Assembly (NCBI GenBank): GCA_963924555.1
Contig: OZ004585.1
Location: forward strand, 3,423,488 to 3,487,487
Origin: Crambe crambe
Lineage: Eukaryota > Porifera > Demospongiae > Poecilosclerida > Crambeidae
Direction of reading: 5' to 3'
Length of the DNA stretch: 64,000 bases
A program made the translations under genes and the position numbers. The notes beneath the pieces were generated by a model, which worked only from the letters and a program-made list of their open reading frames with translations, was not told the origin of the DNA and did not search any database. Shown here one piece after another: positions 4,265 to 61,072 of this stretch. How positions within the stretch are numbered: position 1 is the first letter of the stretch; every line of letters starts with the position of its first letter.

Positions 4265-4407
4265 TTACTCAATGTGTCCTTTAATGAGGCCACACCACTC
4301 ACACGGTAGACTCACACTCAGACAGATATACATAAGGGCAGTCAGAGTGAATACGGGAACATTAAACAATGCTACAAAAAATGACTCACCAGGCAGGCAG
4401 AAGACTT
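4265..4407 (-). other. Tentative last exon with a hydrophobic segment
   Basis: A TTGCAG acceptor opens a frame in phase 1, the same phase in which every EGF exon ends. It encodes about 47 residues: a short polar start (VFCLPGES), a hydrophobic stretch [19 protein letters not shown], then a short tail and a stop. This would give the protease a single transmembrane or lipid-anchor signal. The 506-bp intron and the lack of transcript data make this uncertain; the true 3' end could lie elsewhere. Confidence 0.35.
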
Positions 4408-7400
4408 CTGCAACTAATTTTTTTAAATTTTTTTTAGTGGAACCGTAGAAAATAATAATAGCCATCCACATGGGGTGGGGTTTCCAACTAGAGTCAGAGC
4501 TAGAGAGAAGCTAGCCACAAAAAAAGGCTTGGTTTGAGGCTAGAGAGATGCTATGAAGAGCCTAGGGAAGAGCAACAAGTAGCATTATTAGTGTATTATC
4601 CTATGCTAGAAAGCCTACCTTAGTTTTGGTGATCCACATGACTCTGCTGTTGGATTCACTGTGCATGTGGAGTCCAAAATGAAGTAGAGTTAGTGCCGCA
4701 CTCTTAAGTTAATAGCATGGAGAAGGACAAAGGTACTTAAGAGATTCACGATGGCAGCAAAGCAGGGAGTAAATGTACATTGATATTATTTATGTATTTC
4801 TTTTTTTTTTCCTATTTGGTTTTTCTAACAAAAAACACACTTATCAAAATGCTATGAGATTCAATAACGTATAAATTTGCTCAGACTTGCCCATATAACT
4901 TTAACAAGCTTACTGCTGCAATTGAATCCATTCCCACTGAATCCTGAATTACAGACACAGACAAAGGAACCATTGGTATCTTGACACATGGCATTCACAT
5001 CACATGGAGTACTATCACACTCATTGATATCTGCATTGTAACGATATGATAATGCTTCATACTTCATACTAAATAGGCTAATACTACAAACACTGCAAAG
5101 AAACTAGGATGGTATCAAAAGCTACAGCAGCCATAGTATTTTTTTTTCACCTGGCCTAGAAAGTAAAGGAAATTCCCGACTACTAGCTGACCAACGTAAA
5201 TTTAAATCTTTAAGATCACATTGCAGACCAGTCTGGATTAGTTCCACTATAGCCTCATGCCCAGGCCCAGCTTTTTCAAGGAGCGGGAGAAAAGTGAAAG
5301 GGCCTGGTATGAATTTATGCACCTAAGTACAGTGAAAGATGTACCTAACATGCATGTTCTATCCAGTCTGACTTGAAACTCGACTCTCCAGCTATAATGA
5401 TCTAGGTCTACACTCCAAAATGCATGTCATGCAATAGTGGCACCCTGTGTTGGTGCATAATGTGCATGCTCTAATCGTAATTGCAATAATATTGGTTGAT
5501 AGGCTCATCCAAGTGGATTTTAGGCTCTAAGCGCATTGTGGTAAGCATTACTGTATTCAGCTGCCCATATCTCAACAGTTCTAAGGAGCTGAAATGAATA
5601 TTAGCTCTAAAGCCTATAGGAATATTTGGTGTCAAACTAATGTTGCACATTACCCTAGTAATTAGACATTTCATTGTAAATAATTTTCATTCACTGACAA
5701 GTGTTCAACAATGCAAATTACAGTACCACTTATGTAGGAGTGAAGTCCTCAAGTCCTTATAAATTCCATACATAGGTAGCTAGTTCATAATAGTAAGTTA
5801 TTAATGAATAGGTATCTTTATGGTCCTGACATAGAATGGGTCAATTCAGAGTTCAATGTAAAAAAGGTGAGATGTTTAAAAGTGGAAATGTGAGAGGGAA
5901 GATAAAAATTAGATAGTCAGTTCAGCAAAAGGTCCCTCTTCTGTGTGAGAGGATAGGCGTGATTCGGCTATTGCTCTGTCAATAGGAGGTGACTTTACGG
6001 CTCTGCTAGCTGATGAACATGATCCACAAATTACTTGAATCGTTGATGATAAAGTGAGAATGAAAGCATGCAGCGGAGCAAACACATTGTGGGGTTACAT
6101 GCTTGATTCCATTTAAGGGAGGCTAGACGTTTGAAAGTTGAGGTTGCACTCCATCCTAGGCTACCTATGCAGGACATCACAATTGGTGAAAAGGAGCCAT
6201 GTAATAGCATGAAATGACGTGCTTTAAGCCATAGTATTCGGTAGCTGACTGAAACCTTCACTTGAAGCAGCAACTAACGTTTACATACTTATCCCATTAT
6301 ATGCTACGTATGTAGTATGATAACTGGCTGGCTGCTAGCAATATCTCTATGATTAGGCAGTGGTCCCTAGTTTTATAAAGAGTCCCCATGATTTGTTGCC
6401 ATGGGCCATATTCCGGGTACAGGGGGCCAAAATTAGGCTATATCACTACGATATTGGCCTGGAGTCTGGTAGCCACTTGAACACATCCTTCATAAAAAGC
6501 TTGCACTGATCATTTCTTAAGGGTGAGGTGAGTGAATTCTAGCGCTGAAAGAGTGATAGTTTGTCAAATGTTTTGTGTTATGAAATATAGCAAGTCCCCT
6601 TGATCTGGGGATGGAGCACATGGAGATCTGGGGCCTTTTATTTTTCTCCCATTCTGCGAAAAAATTGGGCCTAGGTACGTTAGCCTAAAGGGATGAGTGG
6701 GATATAGTATGCAAGGACAAGTGGGCATGAATTTAACCTCATCCCTTCAGCTCTTGTATTATATTCCTAACAGGAGCTTACTGCTGCAAGCGAATCCATT
6801 TCCACTGAATCCTGAATTACAGGCACAGACTAAGGAACCATTAGTATCTTGACACATGGCATCCACACCACATGGAGTACCATCACACTCATTGATATCT
6901 GCATGAATTTTAAAGAGATAAGAGAAGGAGATACGGTAAATAAGAGCTTACTGCTGCAAGTGAATCCATTTCCACTGAATCCTGAATTACAGGCACAAAC
7001 AAAGGAACCATTGGTATCTTGACACATGGCATTCACATCACATGGAGTACTATCACACTCATTGACATCTACACAAGTTATAAAGTGATGAGAATATGAA
7101 ATAAAATAAAAATTCTGAGCTTACTGGTACAAATGAATCCATTTCCACTGAATCCTGAATTACAGGCACAAATAAAGGAACCATTGGTATCTTGACACAT
7201 GGCATTCACATCACATGGAGTACTATCACACTCATTGATATCTGCATGAATTTTTAAGGGATAAGAGAAGGAGATACAGTAAAATAAGAGCTTACTGCTG
7301 CAAGTGAATCCGTTTCCACTGAATCCTGAATTACAGGCACAAACAAAGGAACCATTGGTATCTTGACACATGGCATTCACATCACATGGAGTACTGTCAC

Positions 7401-10400
7401 ACTCGTTGATATCTGCATGGGATAGGAATATGACATACATACAAAAAAATGGGAGCTTACTGCTGCAAATGAATCCATTTCCACTGAATCCTGAGTTACA
7501 GGCACAGATAAAAGAACCATTGGTATCTTGACACATGGCATTCACATCACATGGAGTACTATCACACTCATTGATATCTACATGAATTATAAATGGATAA
7601 GAGTATGAGATATAATAAAAGTAGAGCTTACTGTTGCAGATGAATCCATTTCCACTGAATCCTAAATTACAGAAACAGATAAAGGAACCACTTGTGTTTT
7701 GACACACAGCATTCACATCACATGGATTAAAATCACACTCGTTGATATCTGCATGGGTTAGTAAGATAGAGTATGATATACAATAAAATAGGAGCTTACT
7801 GCTGCAAGTGAATCCATTTCCACTGAATCCTGAGTTACAGGCACACACAAAGGAACCATTTGTATCTTGGCACATGGCATTCACATCGCATGGAGTGCTA
7901 TCACACTCGTTGATATCTGCATCATAATGAAAATTTCTTAATGCATGTATACCCTCAAAAATGATAATCTTATGAAATTCTGCAGCCTCCCTCTCTTTTG
8001 CAGGGGGGAATGGATCTACACATGGTATAGACGACTGCATGGCTCTGCCATACTGGGATGTGCCCCCTCCCACACAGAGTGTGAAATAAAATTTACTAAG
8101 TTATTTTTGGAAGACTCATTATTAGCTAATTCTCATAAGTATCAGCTATGTTGTGCACCCATTTTGGGTCTAGGGTCTAGGGCTAGTAGGCTAGGCTAGG
8201 GCTGTGACTAAAAAATGTAAATTTTAGATGTATTTAAGTAACAGAATCTACTTTAGTTATTCAGCAACAAGTGAGCTGAATCTCAGGTCATGGCTCATTG
8301 AAATTGTATACAGGTTACACTCTAAAATGCCCCAGGCATACATAGCTACAGTATGTGTCCCGAATTAGTAGTGCTAGCTGCATGCTCCAATTGTAATCGA
8401 GATTGTTTTTTACAGCCTTTTGTCATAGAGGTGCTTGGCCTCATACCCAGGCTCTAAATTTATGTGGAGGTTGGAAATACATGCAATTTCACACCAAATT
8501 CCTGTCTATTATACTTTATGATGCTTTGTGATATCATAAACATATAACTACATGTATAAGCATCCATTACAGGATACCTAGAAAGCCATCTATTGCAATA
8601 AATTCTGGAGCAAAGAAGACAAGACTGGCACTTCAAGAATTTCCAGTTATGTAAACAAATAAACAGAGGAAATTGCTTGCTGCTGCTCATGTTCAGTACT
8701 AGGTGGGGGGTAAAACACACTGTATGCAAAGAAGAACTGGTACATGAAATAAACTAGAGCTAGCTGTTGCTGTCTGCTGCAGTACAGTGCTGATTCAGCT
8801 ATATTGCATCATTCGTCACGGACAATTACTGAGAGATTTCAGGATTTTGCCACATGTACAAACAGTGGGTACCAAGCCACCTCCGCAAAACTTTAGAGCC
8901 TGGGGATATGGCTAAGAGGAACTAGACTTATTGAAGTGGATTGTAGGAGCTCAAGTGCCTATGGTAACCATTTAATATATGGAACGTCCTGGTTGGAACC
9001 ACCATTTACATATGACTCTGTCTCTGACAGCAATATCTAAGAATGAGTTGGACTTGGAGCTTATCAGCTACTTGCTGTCAAATGCTGCACATTGCCATAG
9101 TAGTAGGCACTAGGCTTATCTAAATGCTTTGTGGTATGAAGTATTACAGCTTTCTATGTATCCAGCCTGCCTACCACTTATAACTCAACAGCAAAATCGG
9201 CTAGCTCACTCGCTGTCAAATGTTTGCACATTACCTTAGTTATTGTGTTTGCTTACATATGGGTGGGGGAATCCAAGGTTCACCCCATGAATTCTGATAT
9301 GAGTCTTCAAATTACAACCAGCTACTTTTAGTCCATACACTTGGATCATCTTTCACCCAGTCTTAATAGCCTCTGTACTACAGGGTTCTGCAGAATCTTT
9401 TCAACAAGAATATGTTCAAATTGTCGTGATAGAGCTATACTGCTGTGGTCCAGGCCTATTGTTCTACTCAGCTACTACTTCCAAATAAGGTAGGTCTTGG
9501 GTCTTCAACTGTTGCAAAGATTCTGCAAAGCCCTGTATCACTATGCAATCTGTTCTAGCTTGTATCTATACGTATCTTCTTCAGTAACAAATCACAACTC
9601 AGGCTGCCCAAATTATTTCCATAACTATGAGTGAATCGGAATTACAGTCACAGACAAAGGAACGATTGACATTATCAATGTCACACACACATAGAGGTAT
9701 GAAATTTTATAGTTCAAGGTAAGAAGGGATTTGCTGTTATAGCCCTTGGTAGCAATGCTTAGGTCTCATAATCAGGAAAATCTTTTCATCAAAACTAAAT
9801 AAAAAATCCCCATGAAATTATAGCTAACCACTTTTGGATTCTACTAGAATTCCTACACACTTTAAATGTGAAGTATTGATGAATTAGAAGCTTACTGCTG
9901 CAAATGAATCCATTTCCACTGAATCCTGAATTACAGGCACAGACAAAGGAACCATTGGTATCTTGACACATGGCATTCACATCACATGGAGTACTATCAC
10001 ACTCATTGATATCTACATGAGTTATTAAGGGATAGGAATATGACAACAAAAAATTGGAGCTTACTGCTGCAAGTGAATCCATTCCCGCTGAATCCTGAGT
10101 TACAGCCACAGATAAAGGAACCATTGGTATCTTGACACATGGCATTCACATCACATGGAGTGCTATCACACTCGTTGATATCTGCATGAATCATAAAGGG
10201 ATAGGAGTATGAGATATGGTAGAATAGGAGCTTACTGCTGCAAGTGATCCCATTTCCACTGAATCCCGAAATACAGGTACAGACAAAGGAACCATTGGTA
10301 TCTTGGCACATGGCATTCACATCACATGGAGTACTATCACACTCGTTGATATCTGCATGAGTTATAAAGGGATAGGAATATGACAACAAAAAAATTGGAG

Positions 10401-13400
10401 CTTACTGCTGCAAGTGAATCCATTTCCACTGAATCCTGAGTTACAGGCACAGACAAAGGAACCATTGGTGTCTTGACACATGGCATTCATGTCACATGGA
10501 GTATTATCACACTCGTTGATATCTGCACAAGTTATAAAGGGATAGGAATATGATACACAAAAAATTGGACCTTACTGCTGCAAGTGAATCCATTTCCACT
10601 GAATCCTGAGTTACAGGCACAGATAAAAGAACCATTGGTATCTTGACACATGGCATTCACATCACATGGAGTGCTATCACACTCGTTGATATCTGCATGA
10701 GTTATAAAGGGATAGGAATATGATATACAAAAAATTGGACCTTACTGATGCAAGTGAATCCATTTCCACTGAATCCTGAGTTACAGCCACAGATAAAAGA
10801 ACCATTGGTATCTTGACACATGGCATTCACATCACATGGAGTGCTATCACACTCGTTGATATCTGCATGAGTTATAAAGGGATAGGAATATGATATACAA
10901 AAAATTGGACCTTACTGCTGCAAGTGAATCCATTTCCACTGAATCCTGAGTTACAGGCACAGATAAAAGAACCATTGGTATCTTGACACATGGCATTCAC
11001 ATCACATGGAGTGTTATCACACTCATTGATATCTGCATGTATTATAAAGGGATAGAAATATGACATACAAAAAAAATTAGAGCTTACTGCTGCAAGTGAA
11101 TCCATTTCCACTGAATCCTGGGTTACAGGCACAGACAAAGGAACCATTGGTGTCTTGACACATGGCATTCACGTCACATGGAGTATTATCACACTCGTTG
11201 ATATCTGCACGAGTTATAAAGGGATAGGAATATGATATACAAAAAATTGGAGCTTACTGCTGCAAGTGAATCCATTTCCACTGAATCCTGAGTTACAGGC
11301 ACAGATAAAAGAACCATTGGTATCTTGACACATGGCATTCACATCACATGGAGTGTTATCACACTCATTGATATCTGCATGAGTTATAAAGGGATAGGAA
11401 TATGATATACACAAAATTGGACCTTACTGCTGCAAATGAATCCATTTCCACTGAATCCTGAGTTACAGGCACAGATAAAAGAACCATTGGTATCTTGACA
11501 CATGGCATTCACATCACATGGAGTGCTATCACACTCGTTGATATCTGCATGAGTTATAAAGGGATAGGAATATGACAATAAAAAAATTGGAGCTTACTGC
11601 TGCAAGTGAATCCATTCCCGCTGAATCCTGAGTTACAGCCACAGATAAAAGAACCATTGGTATCTTGACACATGGCATTCACATCACATGGAGTGCTATC
11701 ACACTCGTTGATATCTGCATGAGTTATAAAGGGATAGGAATATGATATACAAAAAATTGGAGCTTACTGCTGCAAGTGAATCCATTTCCACTGAATCCTG
11801 AGTTACAGGCACAGATAAAAGAACCATTGGTATCTTGACACATGGCATTCACATCACATGGAGTACTATCACACTCGTTGATATCTGCATGAGTTATAAA
11901 GGGATAGGAATATGATATACAAAAAATTGGACCTTACTGCTGCAAGTGAATCCATTTCCACTGAATCCTGAGTTACAGGCACAGATAAAAGAACCATTGG
12001 TATCTTGACACATGGCATTCACATCACATGGAGTGTTATCACACTCGTTGATATCTGCATGAGTTATAAAGGGATAGGAATATGATATACAAATAATTGG
12101 ACCTTACTGCTGCAAGTGAATCCATTTCCACTGAATCCTGAGTTACAGGCACAGATAAAAGAACCATTGGTATCTTGACACATGGCATTCACATCACATG
12201 GAGTGTTATCACACTCATTGATATCTGCATGTATTATAAAGGGATAGAAATATGACATACAAAAAAATTAGAGCTTACTGCTGCAAGTGAATCCATTTCC
12301 ACTGAATCCTGGGTTACAGGCACAGACAAAGGAACCATTGGTATCTTGACACATGGCATTCACGTCACATGGAGTAATATCACACTCGTTGATATCTGCA
12401 TGAGTCATAAAGGGATAGGAACATGAGATATGGTAATATAGGAGCTTACTGCTGCAAGTGAATCCATTTCCACTGAATCCTGAATTACAGGCACAGACAA
12501 AGGAGCCGTTAGTATCTTGACACATGGCATTCATATCACATGGAGTACTATCACACTCATTGATATCTGCATGTGTTATAAAAGGATAGGAATATGACAT
12601 ACATACAAAAAATTGGAGCTTACTGCTGCAAGTGAATGCATTCCCACTGAATCCTGAGTTACAGGCACAGACAAAGGAACCATTGGTATCTTGACACATG
12701 GCATTCACATCACATGGAGTACTATCACACTCGTTGATATCTGCATGTGTTATAAAAGGATAGGAATATGATATACAAAAAAAATTGGAGCTTACTGCTG
12801 CAAATGAATCCATTCCCACTGAATCCTGAGTTACAGGCACAGATAAAGGAACCATTGGTATCTTGACACATGGCATTCACATCACATGGAGTGCTATCAC
12901 ACTCGTTGATATCTGCATGTGTTATAAAAGGATAGGAATATGATATACAAAAAATTGGACCTTACTGCTGCAAGTGAATCCATTTCCACTGAATCCTGAG
13001 TTACAGGCACAGATAAAAGAACCATTGGTATCTTGACACATGGCATTCACATCACATGGAGTGTTATCACACTCATTGATATCTGCATGTATTATAAAGG
13101 GATAGAAAATTGACATACAAAAAATTAGAGCTTACTGCTGCAAGTGAATCCATTTCCACTGAATCCTGGGTTACAGGCACAGACAAAGGAACCATTGGTA
13201 TCTTGACACATGGCATTCACGTCACATGGAGTAATATCACACTCGTTGATATCTGCATGAGTCATAAAGGGATAGGAACATGAGATATGGTAATATAGGA
13301 GCTTACTGCTGCAAGTGAATCCATTTCCACTGAATCCTGAATTACAGGCACAGACGAAGGAGCCGTTAGTATCTTGACACATGGCATTCATATCACATGG

Positions 13401-16400
13401 AGTACTATCACACTCATTGATATCTGCATGTGTTATAAAAGGATAGGAATATGACATACATACAAAAAATTGGAGCTTACTGCTGCAAGTGAATCCATTC
13501 CCACTGAATCCTGAGTTACAGGCACAGACAAAGGAACCATTGGTATCTTGACACATGGCATTCACATCACATGGAGTACTATCACACTCGTTGATATCTG
13601 CATGTGTTATAAAAGGATAGGAATATGATATACAAAAAAAATTGGAGCTTACTGCTGCAAATGAATCCATTCCCACTGAATCCTGAGTTACAGGCACAGA
13701 TAAAGGAACCATTGGTATCTTGACACATGGCATTCACATCACATGGAGTGTTATCACACTCATTGATATCTGCATGTATTATAAAGGGATAGAAATATGA
13801 CATACAAAAAATTAGAGCTTACTGCTGCAAGTGAATCCATTTCCACTGAATCCTGGGTTACAGGCACAGACAAAGGAACCATTGGTATCTTGACACATGG
13901 CATTCACGTCACATGGAGTAATATCACACTCGTTGATATCTGCATGAGTCATAAAGGGATAGGAACATGAGATATGGTAATATAGGAGCTTACTGCTGCA
14001 AGTGAATCCATTTCCACTGAATCCTGAATTACAGGCACAGACAAAGGAACCGTTAGTATCTTGACACATGGCATTCATATCACATGGAGTACTATCACAC
14101 TCATTGATATCTGCATGTGTTATAAAAGGATAGGAATATGACATACATACAAAAAATTGGAGCTTACTGCTGCAAGTGAATCCATTCCCACTGAATCCTG
14201 AGTTACAGGCACAGACAAAGGAACCATTGGTATCTTGACACATGGCATTCACATCACATGGAGTACTATCACACTCGTTGATATCTGCATGTGTTATAAA
14301 AGGATAGGAATATGATATACAAAAAAAATTGGAGCTTACTGCTGCAAATGAATCCATTCCCACTGAATCCTGAGTTACAGGCACAGATAAAGGAACCATT
14401 GATATCTTGACACATGGCATTCACATCACATGGAGTGCTATCACACTCATTGATATCTGGTAGGAATACGGAAGAGTAGCTAAGTAGATTATAAGACAAA
14501 ATATTATGGTGAATATGCACTGAAATAAAATACCTATGACTATAGATAATTTTGGCAGTATAATTGGTACCTGCTACTGTTTTGTTACATTATGTACGAA
14601 ACCAGAATCCTAAAGATCTCCTTCTTATTTCACATCAAAACTGAATGAGATATGAAGAATTGTGATGATCACTAAACTTTGTCCACTAGAGAAGAGAAAA
14701 TCAAAGAGGATAATAGGAATCCAGATAATTCTTTATAACTGTTGGACTTATAACATTCATCTCAAGCAAAAGAAGCTGATATTCATAATTATTCATGTGG
14801 AGGAAAAAGACTCCAGCTAGCCAATATTTTCTTTCTGCAGATTCAATGAAGAGAAGAAATGAACTCCACTTCTGCCTTTTAAAGCTCCATCTCAGTGAGC
14901 AATAGAGAAATACCTATCCTGATCGTATGGCACTTAGCTAAATTTTGAGGAGCTCAACTTTTGCAGATCACCCCATACGTGTCTTGTACGTACAAAAACA
15001 AGGGCGCCGGCTATTTAATGTTGATTCAGAACTAGGTAGCACATCGGATCCATTCTAACTCTTCTAAGTACCGTATTTCCTTGAATAATAGCCCGGGCGT
15101 TTATTTCTTACAGAGAATTCTCATACCCGGCTACAAAATGAGGCAGGCTTCTATATAAGGCCGGCGTCTATTAAATTAATGTACTGCGGGCCGGCGCGGG
15201 GCATATGCACAAGGTGGCGTGTGCATTATTAATGGCGAGTTGAGCGTTATCCGAGGATATAGTTAGCATTGCTGCATCATACGTAGCTGAAAGTAGGTTC
15301 ATTAACTGATCTTACCTGCTTCTTAGACTTTTATCTGTCATTTCTATAGCTTTGATTTTGGTTATGCTACCGTAGCAAGATCTTTTTGACACAAACTTAG
15401 CAGCTGCTTCATGCACGCATGCGCGCGCGGTTTGCAGCTATTAAACTTTGAACTTTGACCAGGCGTTAATTCGAGGCCGGCGTGTATTTCTTATGTTGCT
15501 TGAAGTTTCCCGGCGATTATATGGGGCAGGCGTTTATTCAAGGAGGGCTATTATTCAAGGAAATACGGTAATTAGATTTCTCTCCGGATAAAAAAAAATC
15601 TACTGGTGTAGTGAGGGGGTGTGGTTATTACTTTCACGTGAACACGTATGCACTCCGAATGCAACCTATGTGTACCACACACATATGTAAGCAACTATTT
15701 TACAAGCACATTATTAGCATTCTTTTTCATTAAGTTATTGCTCAGGTTTGCCTGAATGATTTCCATATTATGTTATGGAAGCTTACTACTGCAAGTGAGT
15801 CCATTTCCACTGAATCCTGAATTACATGTACAGACAAAGGAACCATTGGTATCTTGACACATGGCATTCACATCGCATGGAGTACTGTCACATTCATTGA
15901 TATCTATTATGTACATGAAAACAAGAACACTGAGAAAACACTATCAGACCTACTCATGCAAGTATTCCCATTTCCTGAAAATCCAGTAAAGCAGGTGCAC
16001 ATGAAGGAACCAGTGGTATCTTCACATAGAGCATTCTCATCACAAGTGTCTATACCTTCAACACACTCATCTGCATTAATCAAAAAAATTTACATCCGTA
16101 CGTAAGTTTACCACCAAGGTATTTTCTACAGTTGGTTAATTTGGTCAGAGAAATGTTTGACTATCAAAAATGAAAAACGTTGATGAGTTTTTGTTAGCAT
16201 AGCAGCATGCAAGTAAAGAACTAGCCAAAACTAAAATTTAACATACTGAGTGTAAGAGTTATTCTTTAATATGACTAGGGTATGTTCATTGTTCATTACG
16301 GTAAGTGAATCATTTTTTTACATATAATATACATATGTACCACCTCATATCCAGGGTCTGAGTCTTTAATTTGAGAAACTGGTAGTGACTCTATGCTTTA

Positions 16401-17553
16401 TGTTAGCAGAGACAATTCTGTTTAGTCTCAGGTACAGTAAGTTGTATTATCTCTTACAGGAGAATATTCGAAACATTACTTTAGTTGCTGTTATTTGTAG
16501 CCATGCATGAATAGCTAGATAGCTATGCCTTTTATTATTATTATTATTACTTGATAGGCACCACAGGATGTTAAGATATGATTTCATGAATCATCTAGCC
16601 TACTTATGTATTCCAGCTAGTTTCTAGCTCTATCTTTGGGTTGATTGTATACTTACTGACTGCTGCATCTAATAATGCTCACAGCGAGTAATTATCCATT
16701 TTATAAGGCAATGCTTAACTGGGTATGGCAATGTGTAGTGACAAGTATTCCTATATGCTGATAGGCTCAAGTCTAGTATTGATTCAAGCTTCAAATATTT
16801 GCTGTCAAGTTATGTAAGTAAGTGCATAGAAAGCTGTAATACTTACCACAAAGCACTTAGAGCCTACAATTCACTTAGACATGCATGCACAAGTAATCAG
16901 TGCATGCCTGGGCGCTACTATTGCACAGACACATTGCAGGGCATCATATAGGTACTCTCAAGCACCAGGCACAATGGTAGCATAATAGGTGAATTTTCAG
17001 ACATAATAATATTATGCAAAATGTTAGGGTTAAAGCAAAATAGGTAACTTTTGGGGAATTCCTCAAAAGCATAAAAGGCATAATAGACTGATGCCTAATA
17101 CTAGGCACTACTACCTGGGGCATTTACCTGAGAGTTAGCTCGCTCACTTGCTGAATTATACATATAGGGAACTTCAGAAGTTTGGTAACTTCAAACTGTT
17201 TTGAGCAGCTCTAACTCTCCTTAAATATGCTCTATGTAGTAGTATTTTAGTTGCTAATTATGTAGAACATTTTTTACAGATGATGTTTCACTAGACTCAA
17301 CCTGTTTTGAACAACAATTGTGCAGTCACACATACCTATTGTATTCAGAATAGTTACTATAGCATTGCTGGGTGACAGTGTCACGGATGGAGCATTTGAT
17401 GATAGTTGAACTGAGAATGTTTCATTAGACTCGTTATCATTATCGGTAATGATTGTGATATTGACACAATTCCGATTATTTGAGGTTAGATCCAAGTTTG
17501 ATATCAGCATAGAGACAGGAGTATAATCATCCATAACTATAATAATCATAATG

Positions 17554-17616
<63 letters not shown>

Positions 17617-20600
17617 TAATGGGGTGATCTGTGCCATCCCTACTTAGGGAGTAATATTGTACTCTCTGATGAAATAATAATAGTCCCTCATCAGTTCGGG
17701 TGCAAAATTGCATATTGCACTCTTACCTACTACACATGTCCAGATTAGCCTAGTAATGACATTTCTGAAGATAGGCAAGCTAATACTTTTTGACAATGAT
17801 AGGCAATTAAGCTAGGCTAGGCTGATGATAGACAAGCTATTAATAATAGTCAATTTCAGTGTAGTTTTTCTTACCTAAATGACATTTCTGAAGATAATAG
17901 GCAAAGTTGATTGATTTCTACATGGGATTGATCTTATCTAAGTGGATTAGTCTACCCCTAGGCTTTGTCAGGTTCCATTTACAGCTTCCTTCCTGGCTGA
18001 CACATGTAAATGATTAATAGCCAATCACATGATTTTTCATGCAATTTGACTACAATTGCATTTGAAACTGTCTAAATTTTTTCCTCCTGCAATTACCTAG
18101 CCAGTTTCTCATGCAATTATACTCAACCTACGCAGATACAAATAATAATAATAATAATACAACAATAAAACAATCGTTCAATTGTTCAGAGATTTGGTAG
18201 CAGTTTACCATAGCTAAATTTTTATTTATCTGGACCAGGATACGAGTAAAGAAAAATATTTAGCTATTCTAATAAACGAAGATGATGTAGGAACGACTGG
18301 TCAAAAAAGAATTGGAACAAGGGCTTAATGGATGAGTCGTAGCAGCTATAACTTACTGTTTTGCATTAGTCGTAAGGTAGTTTGTGGGTATTAGCTATGA
18401 GTTAGTTGCTCTTTTTTTTTTTTCTTTTTTTTTTTTGGAAACCAGGAAATTGCTTCATATATAAAATCTTTGTACATGCAAGTCATGATCTTAGATGACA
18501 TACTCAGGAAGGTATTATGAGTCAAAGGTGAGTCACTGGCCTGATTTCTGTCTCTAAGAATTGATAATGTAGCTAAGATTTCTACAAAATAAAAATAATA
18601 ACCTTAGATTACTTCATTACTTCCCTGTGCTTTCTAAATCAAGATTTGTCACAATTTCAAAGGTCTTATTTAAGATTATGCTTATGCACATTTTTTAATT
18701 TGACCATATCTAAAGTATCAACTCTTGTAGATTCTTATCAAGAGGTTAACCCATATCAGACTATGGCATCCATAATATGCTTTGAAGTTTTGACCACAAT
18801 TAGGTTTTTAAAACAGTGAAACTACTAGCCATCAGGCTTTGGAGGACCTTCGAGCTGTTGCCAATGATGACCTTCGCCTTCAGTCACCATAATAGCAACA
18901 GCTCTCAGGTTCCTAAAGTAGTGAAACTCCTCAACTTCGTGCAATAACCTATACATAGAGACTCACTGACTCATAATACTTTGCAGGGTGAACCTGATGA
19001 AGGCTAGAGAGTTCTGGTTGAAACGTTGGTGGTTTGTTTCATAAGCTAATTTTATGAGAACTAATTCTATTGAATTTTTATCATGTTAGCTGAGAAAAAT
19101 AAGCAGAGTAAGAATTGTCTTGTTCCTTGCGAATGAATATCCTATTATAAATTTCATCTTGGTAGTACTGATTTTATAATGGATGGTTAATTGCTACCAA
19201 ATAAAAGAAGCAGTGTTGGATTACAATACTGAATACAGCTCTATATAAAGGAAAACTGAAAGACCTCTTCCAATGCTTACCTGAAGCTGTATCATTAGCA
19301 GATGTTATTACATCCAGTGTAACTGAAACAGTTCTATTTAGGGCAGCACTACCAGCACTGTATACAAGTACACACACTGTTATGAAGCCTGTTTGTTCCA
19401 GGACAAAATAAGATTCCATCTGAAGTCCTACAGTCACACCTGCAAAGTTATGTCAATATTTATATATAAGTTTACACTGTTCAAAGATGTATGAATTAAA
19501 GCTATCCACAAAATACCAGTCATTGAATGTCACATCAATTATGTCCTATAATAAAAGAGTTCCATGGTAGCTAACTATTTGACAAAGCTGCTATCTTCAA
19601 ATTATGGGCATTCATATTACCAGTTTCAGGAAAGGAGAGGGTGTAAACAGTAAGGACCACAGTTTCAGGTTTCCATTAGTTCTCGTTATTGCACCTACAT
19701 GCACAACTACACCAGAATTGTGCAGCCATGGGGTGACCTGACTAGCCTTGTACTCAGGCACATTTTGCAGGGAAAGATTAGCAGACCATACAATTTACAG
19801 TAAATGATATAATTATAACAGGTAATTGTTTCTGCTAATAATGTGCACACAGAGTAATTACACCAGAATCAGCTTGGGTGTCTCTCTTATGTCTGCAAAG
19901 AATTTATGAAAATATCTCTTTACAGCTTTTTCAATGTACTTTAATTCTAATGTGATTGTAACAATTTAAATCTCATACTGTCCTGCTATACATTTTTTTT
20001 TTTTTGAGTAGACTACTTTGATTCCAATAAAGTAGTACATTTACACTTACTGTTAGGACATTGGATGCACATAGAATTGATGGAATATCCACTGCCATTG
20101 ACACAGCATAGTGCCACAGAGTCAAAATCTCCAAGAGGAGTTACACACATTCCAGTACTGTCGTAGCTGGCATAGCAGGTCGTCATATTGGATAGAGGAA
20201 CTGGAAACAATGATCACATTTTAATTTATTTATTTTTGGCAATCATGTTTTGTTTTTGTTTTTTGTTGTTGTTATTGTTGTTTTTTTGTTTTGTTGTGTT
20301 TTTTTTTGTAGTCTTCTTCTTCTTCTTCTTCTTCTTCTCCTTCCAGTAGCAAGAGAGTACAAGTTTACATAGTTACGTGCATAAGTTTGTAGCAGGTTCA
20401 AATTAGCAATAATCATGAAGGAAATGCTTTGAGGTTACACATGCACTCTCCAATAACACACAGTTACATAATCTTCAGTAAAAAGCTTGCTCTTCACTCA
20501 TCAGGTTGTTAAATGTACTTCATACCTGCATTGGTGACTCGTCCAGGACAAGGAGTCGGTACTGCATTTTGTATAACAATTTTAGCATCAGTACTGTTAG

Positions 20601-22442
20601 CAGGAGTATAATTATTACCTTGAGTGGGACAATCACTTAAGGTATCCTGTAAGTAAATGAAAATATTTTGTTATCCCTTTCTTAGTTTAGTGTTTAATTG
20701 ATGATAACCACCGTATGGATATTTTCCCCAACTTGTTGAATAGAACTACCAGGATATAGCAATAATGTCAGAGAGACCTTCGATAGCAATTATTAATGAA
20801 AATGTTATGATAGCTTGCTACATATAACCTATACATTATGGCACTGAAAAGTCATAAAAATAGACAAGAGCATTTCAGACTACAGTTACACATGCAACTT
20901 ACAAAACAGATATCAGCACAAGATGGACAAATAAAGGATCCTTGATAACGAAAATTATTCACCATTGTGTCAATCACCAGCTAAATATAGTATTGCTATA
21001 ATTATGACTGATCTCACCATCCACAATTAACTCACCTCTTCACCTTCACATGCACACAAAAATCTTTGACTAAAGAGATGAATCTCCACACCACTTGAAG
21101 TACAAGCATACTGTAATTGATGTAAACACTTAGGATACTCGGTCTAGTTATACTGACACACATGTATAGGTATGACAGTCATACACCTGTAGCTGTCCAG
21201 TAGAGAGTCTTAGTCTAGTTGTCCCAGTTGTGAAAATGAATAAGTTAATTCAACTTTGTTGAATAGGAGCCCTTGTTACATTCATGTATGGTATAGGAAG
21301 CTTTGATTACGTACCTGATAACAGCCAACGCTCCTTGTAACAGTGATTACACTTCCGCTGCTGTCAGTCCTACTCCACCCTCGTCCATGTTCAATACATC
21401 TGGAGCCTGACCCAAGTAATTCACCAACAATATTACTGGATTCAACAGGTTGGTCACCACTATTAGAACAGCTCCTAGACTGAAATGTATAAACATAGTT
21501 AAAAATGTATCATAGAAGTCCACCATGGCTTACATTTGAGAAAGGGCGATCAAATGGGCAGTGATCATATAACTGACTTGAACCACCAACTCTAGCTGGG
21601 CTAATAGTGTTGCTATTAAAGTTTGGCCCAGAATTGAAGTACTGCATAAAAATAAAATGTATATTAACTAAAATCATCAACTTTGGCCAATACCTACATA
21701 CATAATTATGCACTCGTAAAATTACATATGTCAAGTATCTTACACGTACCAAGGATGTAAAATTACTATAAGATAAAAAGTTAGACATACTTGATTCTGA
21801 AGCGGTAAATCACTGGAGAATTGTATTAGATTGCAAAATGATCGTAAGTCTCTATCTACACTGCAAGTAGTGAAACTTCCAGGTGCATTACTCAGGACAT
21901 TGCAGAAAGGACTTATTGAACTTCCACTTTATAATAACACAAATAATAATTATGATGATCTGAAATAATAATCATATTACCTGCTTGTTTGACGGTTGAT
22001 ATGTTCCAGGCAGCTTCCACGAAGAAAACGACAGCCAGCTCCACTCCCCCAAGCAAGGGCTCCAGCCATAGAGTAATTTGCCACATACCACCTACATGGG
22101 TCAGAATCAATGATTATTTAATACTACACACTATGCACTAACCCTGAGTCTTGAAATAGTGCTAAAGTCAGATGAGATACTGGAGAATTAAATGATATCT
22201 GTCCAATCATGTATTCATTCTACATAAAGTATAAATTCCTTAATCAGCTATAATTGCTTTTTGATATTCTCTGTTACATCAGCCTAATTTATAACACTAT
22301 TGACATTACACCAAGGATTCTTGCTTCCCAGTGTGAACCTGCTGTCCCTGATCCACCATCATCTTCCACTTCAACACCAAGAATTGATTCAATAGGACAG
22401 CCATATTGCAAAGAAGCTTGTTCCTATGTGTAGGTGTGTGTG

Positions 22443-22484
<42 letters not shown>

Positions 22485-24630
22485 CGTGTGCATGTGTGTG
22501 TGGTATAATTATAATAACTATTAGCTATGATAAGATCATTTAAAGAATTCATACTATAACATTTGGAGTCACTATGATATTTGCAGCACGTGACACTGGG
22601 CCATTTCTAGTTTCCCAGTCTGGATACATCACATTGCGAACAGTTTCATTTCGAACATTCCCATTTTCATCCCTGAAAAATTGGAAAAGCCCGCTGGTGA
22701 ATCCCTACAAGAAGAAATAATACAGCCAATAATAATAATTGAGGGGAAATCCTAAAGGTAGAAAAATTAAAGTTCCAAATTATAGGCTTGATGGATCAGA
22801 TACCTATTGTCTGTTTGAGTCTGACTGATTTACAACCATTTATAGTTATGCCTAGTCATCTATTCAGCTGACTGATAGTCCAGTGGAGAGCTCAGCTGAG
22901 TCAATGTAGGAATCCCAGTGAGTCGAAGTGAAAGCATCGTGAATGGTAGGTACAAAATGTGTACATACTAAAGCTACCAATGAGCAATGCTCTAAGTATT
23001 CCTTTCACTGACCATACAATATATGCACATATCCCAGCTTTACAATTATTAAGTCCCACCCCTTAATTTCCTTCCTAATAATATCTTCAGTCTTTTAGCG
23101 TAGTGATTGATATCACATTTAGCTCCTACTACATATATAATGAAATACACAATACGTACCAATGGACACACCACCCTCTCACATATGTGCTAAGGTGTAG
23201 GGGAATTTAATAGCTCCAAATATGTAAGTATGCACTAAGGTTGAGACTGGATACGTAGATACAATGATCAACATACCAGTGCATGTGTTACTTCATGAAG
23301 AGCAACAGTAAAAATTTCCTCATCTGTAAGTCCATTGATAACATCAAGGCAGTACACATTAAATCCAGCGATTGGCCTTTAAAAAATAACATGCAACTAT
23401 AATAGTGAAATCCATCACTGTGATACTTACGTACCTACTCAAGGAAGATTCGAGTTGACAAGCATTAGCAAATGCTAAGACACCTGAATTTTGAGCACAA
23501 GTGCCAGTATTACTGTAAGTGTAATATATGATCATGTCTGTGTTGCTTATGCCAGGCCCATCTGTGGATCCTGGCCTCTGAGCACAATTAGCACTGTTAC
23601 CAAAACATTCGGTACATGCCTATAAAAATATAATACACACACAATGAAAGTGAACTGCAATACATATCCTCAAATAATTTATATGCCACCAAAAAAATCC
23701 TACATAGTAGTAGATTTCAAACAAATGTGGTAATCTGGAGTTGGACCATTAGAGTTTTGTACGGACAAAGCAATAACACATCAGCTTTAGCTTTTGGCAG
23801 TTATGATATCCATTTCAAAACTTAAAACTAAGCAGTGGTGGATTCAGGATGCGAGAAAGGGGGTTGCACGCATTCATTTTACTTGACCACACCCACTTCT
23901 GAGGCTGACTGCTGTGACATGGTAAGACTTAGGCAGCTAAATTTTAATAGATACAGCTAGATAGAGATAATAGACGATAAAGAGGATGAAATTAGTCTGC
24001 TTACATCTGAGCATGCTCAGTGGGCACAGCGTGCTGGGCTGGTGGGCAACGACCCCTGGTTCGTGACCTGCCAGACTAGGCCCAAAGGGGGAAACCTTCA
24101 AACCCCCCTGGATCCGCCACTGCTAAGTCATTTATGTTAATACCAATTTTTGATAAATTCAGAGGTTACTATTGATTACTAAATTTCAACTCCTGAGGAA
24201 GAAAATTATAACAGTGTATTGGAACCTTGTTAACCAATATATTTGACTAATGAAAGCCTTTAAGGATCACAGTAGAACCTTTCATTTGCTCGATTACACA
24301 TACTTGTAGGTGATCTTCTGGAATAGGAATGGAACCACAGGTTGAGGTAGCACTACACTGGTTAACACAACCTATTCTTACTGAATCCCGAAAGAAGGCA
24401 CGACCATTATCACAAGACCTGAGAAGCAAACGTACACCACAAGTTAATACATGAATAAAGCCAAATCTGTAAAAAAAAGTACCCTAGTGTATGTACATAT
24501 GTGTGGATATGAAAATCTAAGACTACCCTTATTAGTAGATCAAGTTAATTATGCAGAGATATAAATTCTACCATGGTTATAAATTTGGGCCAATAGGATT
24601 ATAGAGACCTATACCTTTTTACAGAGTCAA

Positions 24631-24661
<31 letters not shown>

Positions 24662-25596
24662 TGGACATCTTCATTCCTACTAAATAGAGTAGAAATTAAT
24701 TATACATCCAGGTTGACAACAAACATAGGCCAGAGTTCAAATATATCGAAAATACTATTCTGCAGTTATGTAATAAATCTGTGGGTATGGCTATTATTGT
24801 ACAGCAGAACCAACAACCATCACTCAATTTTTGTATACAAACTGTGTCTGATTCCTGTTATGAAGTTATAGCTACCAATTACGATAGGCACTGTAGCTAG
24901 CTAGTGGAAGAGACATTTAGCTAGTTACTAATTCCCTCCCCCCTGAAGTTTGCCATTAAAAATATATAGCATAAGCCACAAATATATTGTGGGACTTAGT
25001 TAACTAGCTAAGTTGTCTCAAGAGTGTCCCCATTACATTGTACCTTTGTAACAACAGAGGTTGAGTGACAGGAATGACACTAAGTGCAGCTTGAAAAAAA
25101 CTTTCCAGTCGAGAAATTATTCCCTGTACAAAAAGCAATGTATGTTAGTTAGAATAAAGTGTTTTTTTTGTCAGTAAATGTATGTATAGCTACCTCCAAT
25201 CGCATCCTCTGTGCTGTAGTACCACTGCAGATACAACGATAATTACCATATTAGCTATATATCTTTAAGCTGCTGTTATCATGGACATGAACCACGTTTC
25301 TCAGGTGATTAATATACCAACTTAGCTATTTGAACTAACACGCCACTGTCATGATAGAAAAAGGAGAGACGAAAAGGTGTAAAGTTAGATGCTTCTCTTT
25401 TCTGAGGTCCTGAACCACCTCTAAGGAGTACTCCAGTTATCAGCTATAATAACAGTAACTATGTATATAGACTAGCAAAGTAGCAGAAGATTATACTTAC
25501 TTTTGATGTATCTGGGTCATGATAACACTTAAATTCTATAGCATGGACTGAAAGAGATAGGATACAGATGATCAAGAACTTAGCAAAATTTTCCAT
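4265..25596 (-). CDS. Leishmanolysin-type (M8) metalloprotease fused to Calx-beta and 37 EGF repeats
   Basis: Traced exons from the start: 25501-25596, 25340-25443, 25194-25224, 25044-25123, 24304-24418, 23435-23619, 23277-23376, 22555-22704, 22310-22423, 22143-22219, 21981-22091, 21791-21926, 21534-21641, 21315-21479, 21036-21110, 20903-20980, 20526-20646, 20051-20200, 19281-19439, 17336-17536, then 37 EGF exons (16070 down to 4914) and a tentative last exon 4265-4407. All have GT-AG boundaries and all phases match, totalling about 2,275 residues. A signal peptide ([19 protein letters not shown]) is followed by a C-Y-H-D motif like the M8 cysteine switch. The zinc site is HEVTHALGF (His231, Glu232, His235) with the third His in GSHWE (His318) and a Met-turn-like NEYM at 326-329. 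Residues about 666-785 form a Calx-beta domain. It is probably a secreted or membrane-anchored protease with a long calcium-stiffened stalk. Splicing is inferred, not observed. Confidence 0.85.
4914..5030 (-). repeat. Isolated EGF exon, last of the traced series
   Basis: A 117-bp exon identical in design to the array members ([20 protein letters not shown] and six cysteines), with GT-AG boundaries and phase 1-1. It is separated from the next upstream EGF exon (6782) by 1.75 kb of intron filled with dispersed repeats. Confidence 0.8.
5031..6781. other. Long intron with dispersed repeats
   Basis: No exon of the EGF type is seen here. It contains a repeat shared with 8930-9240 and 16740-16930 (landmark TTAGGCTCTAAGCGCATTGT near 5520) and a short segment AAAGTGAAAGGGCCTGGTAT near 5294 that recurs near 58112. 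The small minus-strand open frames have no recognisable content. Confidence 0.5.
6782..7916 (-). repeat. EGF exon cluster, 7 exons
   Basis: Exons 6782-6898, 6952-7068, 7125-7241, 7296-7412, 7461-7577, 7632-7748 and 7800-7916, each 117 bp, with introns of 48-56 bp. All except 7632-7748 are nearly identical. That one differs most ([26 protein letters not shown]) and looks like an older copy. Four introns (54, 48, 54 and 51 bp) are multiples of three and stop-free, so five exons read through in one frame. Confidence 0.85.
7917..9895. other. Long intron with a decayed EGF exon
   Basis: Mostly repeat-derived DNA. About 9618-9690 keeps fragments of an EGF exon (the tract GAATTACAGTCACAGACAAA and a damaged remainder), which looks like a dead array unit. 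The 8930-9240 part is a copy of the dispersed family also found at 5480-5660 and, reversed, at 16740-16930. Confidence 0.5.
9896..14456 (-). repeat. Dense EGF exon array, 27 exons with higher-order repeats
   Basis: Low ends of the 117-bp exons: 9896, 10065, 10236, 10406, 10576, 10746, 10916, 11088, 11258, 11428, 11598, 11768, 11938, 12108, 12279, 12450, 12624, 12796, 12966, 13136, 13307, 13481, 13653, 13823, 13994, 14168 and 14340. Each starts after CAG with ATATCAAC and ends GCA before GTAAG; introns are 52-57 bp and also nearly identical. Each unit encodes one calcium-binding EGF of 39 residues. The intron length series 54-57-55-53 recurs, marking a block of four exons (687 bp, 13136 to 13823) and a related block of five (857 bp, 12279 to 13136). 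This implies recent block duplication or strong homogenisation. Confidence 0.9.
14457..15786. other. Intron containing a DNA transposon
   Basis: Between EGF exons 14340-14456 and 15787-15903. Apart from the terminal-inverted-repeat element at 15069-15570 I see no exon or RNA gene. Confidence 0.5.
15069..15570. mobile_element. Non-autonomous DNA transposon, TA-flanked
   Basis: The ends are perfect inverted repeats of 23 bp starting CCGTATTTCCTTGAATAATA, flanked by TA on both sides, as for Tc1/mariner-type insertions. The interior is GC-rich for this window (GGCCGGCG motifs) and repeats sub-motifs such as GGCGTTTATT. It has no transposase frame. It lies in an intron of the protease-EGF gene. 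Confidence 0.8.
15787..16070 (-). repeat. First two EGF exons of the large gene
   Basis: Exons 15787-15903 and 15954-16070. The upstream one (15954-16070) is divergent: it begins [16 protein letters not shown] and ends GNTCM, and is joined in phase 1 to the Calx-beta exon 17336-17536. The other is of the common type. The divergence suggests that the array expanded from units downstream of these founders. Confidence 0.85.
16071..17335. other. Intron between Calx-beta and EGF exons
   Basis: No exon recognised. It contains, in reverse orientation at about 16740-16930, the dispersed repeat also seen at 5480-5660 and 8930-9240 (landmark CTTACCACAAAGCACTTAGA). Confidence 0.5.
17618..17670 (-). repeat. 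Short interspersed palindromic repeat, copy 2
   Basis: Reverse-strand copy of the 441-497 element, reading AATGGGGTGATCTGTGCCAT and then the GAGTA/TACTCTC arms on the plus strand. It abuts the AAT microsatellite. Confidence 0.75.
18990..19104 (+). mobile_element. Penelope-like fragment with hammerhead-like core
   Basis: Contains CTGATGA (18994-19000) and GAAAC (19020-19024) followed by GTTGGTGGTTTGTTTCATAA and a tail ending GCTGAGAAAAATAAGCA. The core and flank match 27875-27955 closely. The tail is the reverse complement of the start of that second copy. No upstream ACGT arm is seen, so the ribozyme fold is not complete here. Confidence 0.55.
23833..24122. mobile_element. MITE with CAGTGGCGGATCCAG-type ends
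   Basis: The ends CAGTGGTGGATTCAGG and CCTGGATCCGCCACTG are inverted repeats, and CTAAG flanks both sides (23828-23832 and 24123-24127). Such ends resemble those of hAT-type non-autonomous elements, although hAT duplications are normally 8 bp. It sits in the intron between protease exons 24304-24418 and 23435-23619. Confidence 0.7.
24632..24657. repeat. Poly-C tract
   Basis: About 26 consecutive C in an intron of the protease gene. A second run lies near 27199-27213. The lengths may be assembly-sensitive. Confidence 0.8.
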
Positions 25597-59311: not shown

Positions 59312-61072
59312 TTACACATCATTCCATAGATAGCGTTCATCTTTTAGCAACTTGGCTAATTTGATATTATATGGATTAAAAAATTCTCTCAAAATATTCC
59401 TAGTTTCTGGCCACATCCTGAAATTTGCCGCATATTCGCTACTAGTAATCCATGGATTTTTGTTCACTTTATCCTTTATGACACTGTTGGTTCTCTGCAC
59501 GCCAATGAATGACCAAATCGATTTCATAGTTGATAGTGGATCAGCTGATAAATCTTCCATTCTTATTAGCAGAATTTGATTTTGTTGAAATATACTGAAC
59601 CATCTTAAGACATGTAAATAATATATACTGAGTCCCAACCTTAAATTTTTACAACCTGCTTCATGTCCCGGGGTGCTTCCTGTTAAATTTGTGCAATATA
59701 ATTCAGAATGACCACTGCTTATGCACTTATGAAATTGTTCTATTATTGAGATACTGTGGTTATGAAATATTTCAGAAGCTACAAGAGTAATCTTTTTTGG
59801 AATTCTGTATTTATCATTAGATTTCCACCTTGAACGAGAACAAAAATACCAAAAATCAGACCATAATCTATCAACTGGATTCCGCATGATTATCACAACT
59901 TTGGACTGAGGAAGAGTGTTATGTAGAATCCATGGAACAAAGCAGATATCTTTATTGAAACTCCCAAATAGTTGAGAAGCAGCAAACACAGTCGAAGCAC
60001 TGGCATCAACAGTGAACATGTTCGAGGTTCGTCTCAGCTTATCTGAAGCACCGAAGAAATGAAATAAATATATCAAAACTTGTAACTGTTTATATTTGAT
60101 ATTTGATGTTTTTGTGAAGTCTCTCCAAAACTCATCCTCCTTCCAGCGAGGCTTAGCAAATAAAGGATGAGACTCAAAATATTTATACAACAAAGTTGTT
60201 CCACACTTAGGAAATCCTATTAGAAAGACAGTAGGAACACAAAAGTAATTATCAGTCTGATGTTTGGTAAAAAGGGTATGGTTACTAGAACCCAACAGCC
60301 TTTTCATGATCATCTCGACTTCATCTTCTCCAAACCATTTCTCTATATCCACATAAAAGTTTAAGTTGGTCATTTTTTGAGTATGACTAGCTGGCAGTAC
60401 ATTGAAGTTTTGTACATACCAACAGTTAGAGGATGTCATTTCATTCTGATGTGGTATAAACTTATGCCATGAATCTAAATTATTCGTTATGATCGAGGAC
60501 GAGCTCGCATCAGCCGCTTCCTTCATTTCATGACAAGGGTCCTGTTGATGACTCTGATACAAGTGCTCTGCAGTAAAGCGATAATGAATAAATCTACTTG
60601 CATTTGTATGAATTTTGCTATTTAAAATTTAATGAATATTTTGACAAATCGTAAACCAGTTGACATGTTTGGTGAGTGAAAAGTGAGCCAGTTTATGGAA
60701 AATACCATGATACATGTGTACTTAAATTATTGGTTCAAAACAAACATTTCTGTTAAAGCTGACTCAGATAACTTCCTCCAGCTAGTAAAATGATTATGAT
60801 CTGTCCCGCTAGCTATGAGAAGATCACTGGTACAGCAATTTGGTTTGAATAATCGAAGCCCCATAACCAATACTCAGAGCCTGGGCATGGGGTACAAATA
60901 CTGTACAGAAAACTATGTAACTTGCCATCTTGATATTTCACTGAATTTCTCATACGAATCTCATCCTTCACAAGGCTGATGTGAACTCCAACCACATCAC
61001 TACTTTCATTGATCGACTCCAATTTCCCTACTCTGTTTCTTAGTAAATAAGTATAATTGAAATGGGTACACC
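59312..61072 (-). CDS. Sulfotransferase, carbohydrate-type
   Basis: The main exon is 59312-60567. It has the 5'-phosphosulfate loop GFPKCGTTLLYKY and the 3'-phosphate site IIMRNPVDRLWSDFWYF, about 110 residues apart, as in PAPS-dependent sulfotransferases. The order and the late WxSSEYAANF and MWPET segments suggest the GalNAc4S-6ST/CHST15-like group. The enzyme would move sulfate from PAPS to a glycan in the Golgi lumen. The exon starts after a CTGCAG acceptor with no Met, so upstream exons exist. A phase-compatible candidate is 60902-61072 (171 bp, HFNYTYLLRN start), but no signal anchor or start codon was found. Confidence 0.8.

What the first reader, a model, noticed from the sequence alone, without database searches (positions are those of the whole stretch)
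4265..25596. Leishmanolysin protease fused to Calx-beta and a 37-unit EGF stalk
Twenty upstream exons and 37 EGF exons on one strand join with matching phases throughout (total 6,828 coding bases, divisible by three including the tentative last exon). The M8 catalytic set is intact: HExxH, the third His in GSHWE and a Met turn. M8 proteases in animals are usually short, without such a calcium-binding repeat stalk. This architecture would place a metalloprotease on a long rigid rod, possibly for adhesion, self/non-self contact or matrix turnover.
Basis: partly seen in the sequence, partly recalled or inferred. Interest (0 to 1): 0.88.

Follow-up and report, generated by a model that had tools for sequence, protein, structure and literature searches.

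The report
Sponge leishmanolysin on EGF stalk
A sponge gene appears to join a leishmanolysin-type protease to a Calx-beta domain and a stalk of 37 near-identical calcium-binding EGF units, while close relatives in the same genome keep the protease but seem to carry a short serine- and threonine-rich tail instead.

Summary
On the minus strand, 20 exons (25596-17336) and 37 EGF exons (16070-4914) join in phase without a stop: 6,733 coding bases. Pfam finds Peptidase_M8 (1.4e-60), Calx-beta (1.4e-13) and EGF; HEVTH, the third His and the Met-turn align with Leishmania leishmanolysin. The EGF units are constrained (pN/pS 0.23) and partly near-identical, so the array expanded recently. New here: another contig (C11) holds four long M8 copies, sister to the window gene in a tree, plus a partial one. 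They share the M8 exons and the next exon's motifs, then seem to end in Ser/Thr-rich frames, mostly with a hydrophobic, GPI-like tail. No frame as Ser/Thr-rich lies in the window introns tested; the gene runs on into Calx-beta and EGF. I read this as a stalk swap in a branch of animal M8 proteases. A third, short M8 gene (C19) groups with ordinary LMLN/invadolysin. M8+EGF proteins exist in protists; I found none named from an animal. Not shown: RNA across the Calx-beta/EGF junction, the 3' end, function, other sponges.

The parts
25501..25596 (-). exon 1: start codon, signal peptide, pro-region with FKCYHD (Cys 24)
25340..25443 (-). exon 2: pro-region, basic pair KR (residues 47-48)
   Evidence: aligns to the C19 exon
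25194..25224 (-). exon 3 (31 nt)
   Evidence: least certain of the M8-part exons
25044..25123 (-). exon 4
24304..24466 (-). exon 5
23435..23619 (-). exon 6, M8 domain
23277..23376 (-). exon 7, zinc motif HEVTH
22555..22704 (-). exon 8, M8
22310..22423 (-). exon 9, third zinc His (GSHWE)
22143..22219 (-). exon 10, Met-turn (NEYMIG)
21981..22091 (-). exon 11, M8
21791..21926 (-). exon 12, M8
21534..21641 (-). exon 13, M8
21315..21479 (-). exon 14, M8
21036..21110 (-). exon 15, M8
20903..20980 (-). exon 16, end of M8 (CPSCADICF)
   Evidence: exon end shared with C11 and C19 paralogues
20526..20646 (-). exon 17, linker with motifs shared by the C11 paralogues (DTLSDC.., PCPGRVT)
20051..20200 (-). 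exon 18, Cys-rich linker; no second match in this genome
19281..19439 (-). exon 19, Calx-beta first half
17336..17536 (-). exon 20, Calx-beta second half
15787..16070 (-). EGF units 1-2 (exons of 117 nt, phase 1-1)
9896..14456 (-). EGF units 3-29, tandem array of a 170-bp exon+intron unit
6782..7916 (-). EGF units 30-36
4914..5030 (-). EGF unit 37
4265..4407 (-). tentative last exon with a hydrophobic stretch (KVFC..GHIE stop); unproven

Best explanation
One gene encodes a secreted or surface zinc protease of family M8 (leishmanolysin), in a branch of the animal LMLN/invadolysin family seen so far only in this genome, whose C-terminal stalk has been exchanged. Shown from sequence: a hydrophobic leader, a pro-region with a cysteine and a basic pair, the complete M8 catalytic set, two linker exons, one Calx-beta domain and 37 calcium-binding EGF units in phase. 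Shown by comparison: sister M8 copies on another contig keep the M8 exons and the exon 17 motifs and then run into Ser/Thr-rich frames with a stop, which I do not find in the window. Inferred: the enzyme is made as a zymogen held by the pro-region cysteine (as recalled for GP63) and freed by cleavage after Lys-Arg; calcium stiffens the EGF units into a rod of up to roughly 100 nm (about 2.7-3 nm per unit, recalled) that holds the protease away from the cell or anchors it in matrix; recent unit duplication sets the rod length.
For: Gene model without stops, matched phases. Pfam M8, Calx-beta, EGF. 1lml alignment. A Cys and a basic stretch also stand near the N terminus of most of the named animal sequences printed (by eye). 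M8 part under purifying selection against 4 C11 copies, dN/dS 0.21-0.25 (dS 1.0-1.6, near saturation). EGF units pN/pS 0.23 over all pairs, 0.38 for comparisons with the divergent units 1, 2, 31 and 36; 0 of 37 broken. C8+C11 clade 100/100 inside an animal M8 clade 100/99. The exon 16 end and the exon 17 motifs recur in the C11 copies. One ATG first-exon candidate (12 codons or more, consensus-type donor) in phase before EGF 1, not signal-like. In introns 17, 18 and 20, 0 of 2, 0 of 5 and 0 of 15 distinct terminal frames end as hydrophobically as C11 tails 1, 2 and 4 (2.0 or more), and none reaches their Ser+Thr content of 37-40% (highest 26%).
Against: No RNA was available, so junctions 17-18, 18-19, 19-20 and 20-21 rest on phase and on the lack of good alternatives. 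Phase 1-1 joining is common for extracellular modules (recalled), so a phase match is weak by itself. At the looser level of the C19 tail (1.7), intron 20 has 1 of 15 hydrophobic terminal frames (19 residues, at 16863), and intron 19 has 2 of 21, both built on simple repeats. Introns 19 and 20 (1,744 and 1,265 bp) are the longest of the 20 upstream ones (middle about 140), although introns of 1,330, 1,979 and 1,751 bp lie inside the EGF part. The 3' end is unresolved. Exon 3 and the C11/C19 exons were placed by eye; the tail frame of C11 copy 5 is not GPI-like by my measure (1.34).
Confidence: 0.7

Rival explanations
1. Two genes: an M8 + Calx-beta gene that ends in a short exon after 17336, and a separate EGF-array gene that starts between 17335 and 16071.
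For: The 1,265-bp gap between exon 20 and EGF 1 is long for this gene. Genes can lie very close here: the tail stop of C11 copy 1 is followed by copy 2 within a few hundred bases. 15 distinct terminal frames exist in the gap, one of them as hydrophobic at its end as the C19 tail.
Against: That frame has only 19 residues and such frames are expected by chance. None of the 15 reaches the C11 level. The only ATG exon in phase with a consensus-type donor is not signal-like, so the EGF gene would need an unseen signal exon. Phases match.
Confidence: 0.18
2. One locus with alternative 3' ends: a short secreted or anchored M8 isoform (ending in intron 19 or 20) and a long EGF-stalk isoform.
For: Two strongly hydrophobic terminal frames in intron 19 and one weaker in intron 20. 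Secreted forms of invadolysin are reported in flies and vertebrates (PMC6899020, passages).
Against: The two frames in intron 19 come from simple repeats and would cut Calx-beta in half; no tail like those of the C11 or C19 copies was recognised in the window (tblastn, best E 0.32).
Confidence: 0.2
3. Decaying or unexpressed array: the EGF exons are a repeat expansion without protein function.
For: Near-identical units and a possible remnant of a unit at 9670-9638 (11 residues, E 0.62).
Against: 0 of 37 units broken, splice sites intact, third codon positions vary about 2.5 times more than first and second, pN/pS 0.23.
Confidence: 0.05

Closest known systems
Animal LMLN / invadolysin (M8): the C19 copy of the same genome and named animal hits
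   Same: M8 domain with the catalytic set; N-terminal Cys in most named animal hits printed; 10 of 13 C19 exon ends fall within one column of window exon ends, C19 ends having been placed by eye
   Different: Mostly about 650 aa in the named hits, PF01457 only; C19 has a short hydrophobic C-tail and no Calx-beta or EGF seen in its locus; the window gene is in a separate branch
C11 M8 cluster of the same genome (four long copies, one partial)
   Same: Closest relatives (four long copies in the tree); same exons to the end of M8 and exon 17 motifs
   Different: Ser/Thr-rich frame and stop in place of exon 18, Calx-beta and EGF; a weak Calx-beta-like piece (E 0.37) lies beyond copy 5 on the other strand
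Protist M8 proteins with EGF-type repeats (Pythium insidiosum, Cafeteria roenbergensis; ciliate Miamiensis avidus)
   Same: M8 together with EGF-like units (ciliate: one table passage of PMC3599101)
   Different: EGF_2 or teneurin-type EGF profiles, or furin-like repeats in the ciliate; no Calx-beta; Pythium and Cafeteria M8 outside the animal clade (the ciliate was not in the tree)
Leishmania leishmanolysin GP63 (1lml)
   Same: Catalytic residues aligned
   Different: Chain of 478 residues, matched to the M8 part only
EGF-array gene at C1:4608 kb of the same genome
   Same: Same kind of short-intron EGF exon array
   Different: No M8 match there; an IgGFc-type long exon precedes it (by eye)

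Membership tests
Peptidase M8 (leishmanolysin) | HExxH, third His, Met-turn, whole-domain match | tested here: met
Peptidase M8 (leishmanolysin) | proteolytic activity | not testable with these tools
   needs expressed protein
Animal LMLN/invadolysin, in the wide sense | falls in the animal M8 clade | tested here: met
LMLN orthologue, in the narrow sense | groups with C19 and other animals rather than apart | tested here: not met
   C8+C11 separate (100/100), C19 with other animals (89/87)
LMLN orthologue, in the narrow sense | short C-terminal hydrophobic tail directly after M8 | tested here: inconclusive
   none in introns 17 and 18, weak frames in introns 19 and 20; no RNA
Calx-beta | Pfam PF03160 over nearly the whole profile | tested here: met
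   5-117 of 119
Calcium-binding EGF | six Cys, [DN]-[IV]-[DN]-E start, Cx[DN]x4[FY]xC (consensus recalled) | tested here: met
   37, 36 and 36 of 37; PF07645 above cut-off
Protist M8-EGF proteins | same EGF type and M8 branch | tested here: not met
Sponge aggregation factor | tandem Calx-beta repeats with the family's own end domains (recalled) | tested here: inconclusive
   one Calx-beta only; end domains not searched

The most novel reading that the evidence does not exclude
In this sponge lineage an M8 protease family duplicated and diversified its stalk, and the window copy became a calcium-stiffened protease rod whose length changes by recent unit duplication and may differ between individuals, so that it acts as a variable contact or matrix-remodelling surface enzyme in cell or self/non-self contact.
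Probability: 0.12. Interest if true: 0.78.

Novelty: new variant of a known kind. Interest (0 to 1): 0.5.

Why it matters
If confirmed, it would be an animal leishmanolysin with a multidomain calcium-dependent stalk, and a case where sister genes in one genome show stalk replacement, plausibly by shuffling of phase 1 exons. It would give an enzyme candidate for sponge matrix or contact biology, and a repeat array whose length could be measured between individuals.

Tried and rejected
A Pfam M8 search of the genome showed only two M8 loci; the protein search showed a third, the C11 cluster, so the family search had missed it. NCBIfam gave only a match far below its cut-off. Structure prediction was not used, because a spliced protein is not read letter for letter from the window. 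Literature, search listings only: 0 papers for sponge+leishmanolysin+EGF, sponge+Calx-beta+EGF+aggregation factor and leishmanolysin+Amphimedon; 10 for sponge+Calx-beta, 2 for Crambe crambe+metalloprotease, 10 for leishmanolysin+EGF-like+domain and 4 for leishmanolysin+sponge, none about a sponge M8 by title and start of abstract. The library holds open-licence papers only, so absence is weak. Each of the three protein searches scored a capped candidate list (7,990-7,992) and gave no hit named as a sponge protein, so absence in other sponges is not shown.

Full report
What is there. I rebuilt the gene on the minus strand from 25596 downwards. Twenty exons (25596-17336) followed by 37 EGF exons of 117 nt each (16070-4914) join with matching phases, AG acceptors and GT donors, and no stop; the spliced length is 6,733 nt, 2,244 aa. 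My first guess needed one exon added (exon 2) and three ends shifted by a few bases (donors of exons 9 and 16, acceptor of exon 20). Pfam gives Peptidase_M8 at residues 172-593 (E 1.4e-60), Calx-beta at 682-799 (1.4e-13) and several EGF models beyond residue 800 (run on the first 918 residues). The only solved relative found by sequence with residues 1-631 is leishmanolysin 1lml (2.7e-30); HEVTH, the third His and the Met of the Met-turn align with it (residue numbers). A cysteine near the N terminus (FKCYHD) and a Lys-Arg pair at 47-48 precede the catalytic domain; most of the named animal sequences printed show a Cys and a basic stretch in the same region by eye.

The EGF array. Six Cys are kept in 37 of 37 units, the cbEGF-type start in 36 and the hydroxylation motif in 36. 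Tandem Repeats Finder describes the stretch of units 3-29 as 26.7 copies of a 170-bp period. Exon identity averages 0.92 over all unit pairs, ten pairs of exons are identical, and many exon+intron units are 98-100% alike across units four, five or more apart. Exons are more alike than the 33 short introns (0.917 against 0.867). pN/pS is 0.23 over all pairs and 0.38 for comparisons with the divergent units 1, 2, 31 and 36; third codon positions vary about 2.5 times more than first and second. The array is therefore recent, coding and constrained. A possible remnant of a further unit lies at 9670-9638 (11 residues, E 0.62).

Relatives in the same genome. The genome's sizes fit Crambe crambe odCraCram1 (143.14 against 143.20 Mb; contigs C1, C9, C11 and C19 equal chromosomes 1, 6, 8 and 16 to 0.01 Mb; C8 is 9.17 against 9.18 Mb; 119 contigs against 124 scaffolds; passages of PMC12166358). 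This is a match of sizes, not proof. A Pfam search found M8 exons at the window and at C19 only. The spliced protein as query found a third place, C11:1179-1203 kb. There tblastn shows four long copies and one partial copy; pieces without a stop are about 37-85% identical to the window. HE[VA]TH and GSHWE are present in 4 of 4 long copies. In a tree of 29 rows the window copy and the four C11 copies form a clade (100/100), and C19 groups with the other animals (89/87), all inside an animal clade (100/99); the tool warned of long branches among the other rows. In the earlier tree of 30 rows, without C11, the window and C19 copies were an open fork of the animal clade, Styela (a very long branch) lay outside it, and two Bactrocera sequences sat with a trypanosomatid. 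dN/dS between the window and the C11 copies is 0.21-0.25 over 192-468 codons, with dS 1.0-1.6, so the window protease is probably kept by selection.

The stalk swap. C19 and the C11 copies share with the window the exon end after CPSCxxIC. The C11 copies then continue with D-S-L-[SA]-N-C and P-C-P-[GE]-x-[VI]-T motifs, much as window exon 17 does (DTLSDC..PCPGRVT), and after that with a Ser/Thr-rich frame: 37-40% Ser+Thr in copies 1, 2 and 4, 31% with much Pro in copy 5, a serine run in the partial copy. In four of the five the frame ends in a strongly hydrophobic tail and a stop (2.2-2.9 on my scale); in copy 5 the end is weaker (1.34). C19 ends in a short exon with a hydrophobic tail (1.71). 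The joins of these tail exons were read by eye. The window shows no convincing match to these tails (tblastn with the tails of copies 1, 2, 4 and C19, best E 0.32). At the level of 2.0, none of the 2, 5 and 15 distinct terminal frames in introns 17, 18 and 20 is GPI-like; at the C19 level of 1.7 one 19-residue frame in intron 20 is. Intron 19 has two strong ones out of 21, both built on simple repeats, and using them would split Calx-beta. None of the frames in introns 17, 18, 19 and 20 is as Ser/Thr-rich as C11 copies 1, 2 and 4 (highest 33%). Exon 18 has no second match in the genome. So the window gene seems to have lost the tail of its sisters and to continue into Calx-beta, whose last exon ends in phase 1 without a stop; the next in-phase coding exon that I recognise is EGF 1. 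In the gap between them only one ATG exon of 12 or more codons with a consensus-type donor fits the phase, and it is not signal-like. That is the case for one gene. It is an argument from sequence, not RNA, and which tail is ancestral is inferred from the C11 and C19 copies.

Where else. Calx-beta matches (53) and EGF matches (184, not all listed) in the genome did not fall close together by eye, apart from the window (lists are lower bounds). The genome has other EGF exon arrays, e.g. at C1 after an IgGFc-type exon (by eye). In the protein collection the 631-aa M8 query gave 116 proteins, the M8+Calx-beta region of a 1,503-aa query 2, and the M8 region of the 2,244-aa query 39. 23 of these 39 list EGF-type Pfam families (PF07974, PF23106 or PF25024), none lists Calx-beta or EGF_CA; the two of the 23 with an organism name are Pythium insidiosum and Cafeteria roenbergensis. 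Pfam scans of 5 of the long proteins show EGF-type families above cut-off in 2 of 5, Pythium (whose model also carries a BEACH domain) and Cafeteria. A ciliate paper lists M8 with EGF-like and furin-like repeats (PMC3599101, one table passage). So M8+EGF arose outside animals in other forms; the present architecture differs in EGF type, Calx-beta and M8 branch. No hit was named as a sponge, so its spread among sponges is unknown.

How it may work. Shown: catalytic residues, domain order in the genome, selection, recent expansion, sister genes with another tail. Inferred: secretion, zymogen control by the pro-region cysteine, maturation at Lys-Arg, calcium-stiffened rod, attachment. The cysteine-switch idea is recalled for GP63; the one passage I saw for a schistosome invadolysin names other cysteines, further along, as candidates (PMC9928134). 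GPI addition has been predicted for invadolysin, but the plasma form was apparently not GPI-linked (PMC6899020, passages), so 'GPI-like' for C11 and C19 is my reading of a hydrophobic end. Whether the window protein is held by a membrane segment (the tentative exon 4407-4265) or released into the matrix is open.

Verdict. New variant of a known kind; function open.

Noticed in passing
G000:C11:1178491-1203613 (L048, L049, L050): A cluster of five M8 paralogues (four long, one partial), with Ser/Thr-rich tails of different lengths and a long serine run in the partial one; missed by the Pfam M8 search.
   Followed up: partly
G000:C11:1205178-1205273, plus strand (L050): A weak Calx-beta-like piece (E 0.37) beyond copy 5 of the M8 cluster.
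   Followed up: no
G000:C1:4604-4616 kb (L032, L033): EGF exon array with a long IgGFc-binding-like exon and an SRCR-like exon upstream and NIDO/AMOP-like frames downstream; names by eye, no domain search.
   Followed up: no
G000:C9:6288-6373 kb: A stretch of some 85 kb with dozens of EGF matches of the same type.
   Followed up: no
G000:C10:6556-6568 kb: Ten Calx-beta matches spaced about 1.2 kb apart, a tandem Calx-beta gene or genes.
   Followed up: no
window 17539-17620: Trinucleotide microsatellite directly upstream of the exon 20 acceptor; it makes leucine, isoleucine or tyrosine runs.
   Followed up: partly
window 9670-9638: Possible remnant of an EGF unit in the gap after unit 29 (11 residues, E 0.62).
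   Followed up: no
window 59315-60628, minus strand: Sulfotransferase reading frame (Pfam Sulfotransfer_1, 5e-17).
   Followed up: no
window 51505-52041, minus strand: Possible TM2-domain frame, below Pfam's cut-off; a frame that looks similar lies at 54771-55088 and has no Pfam match.
   Followed up: no
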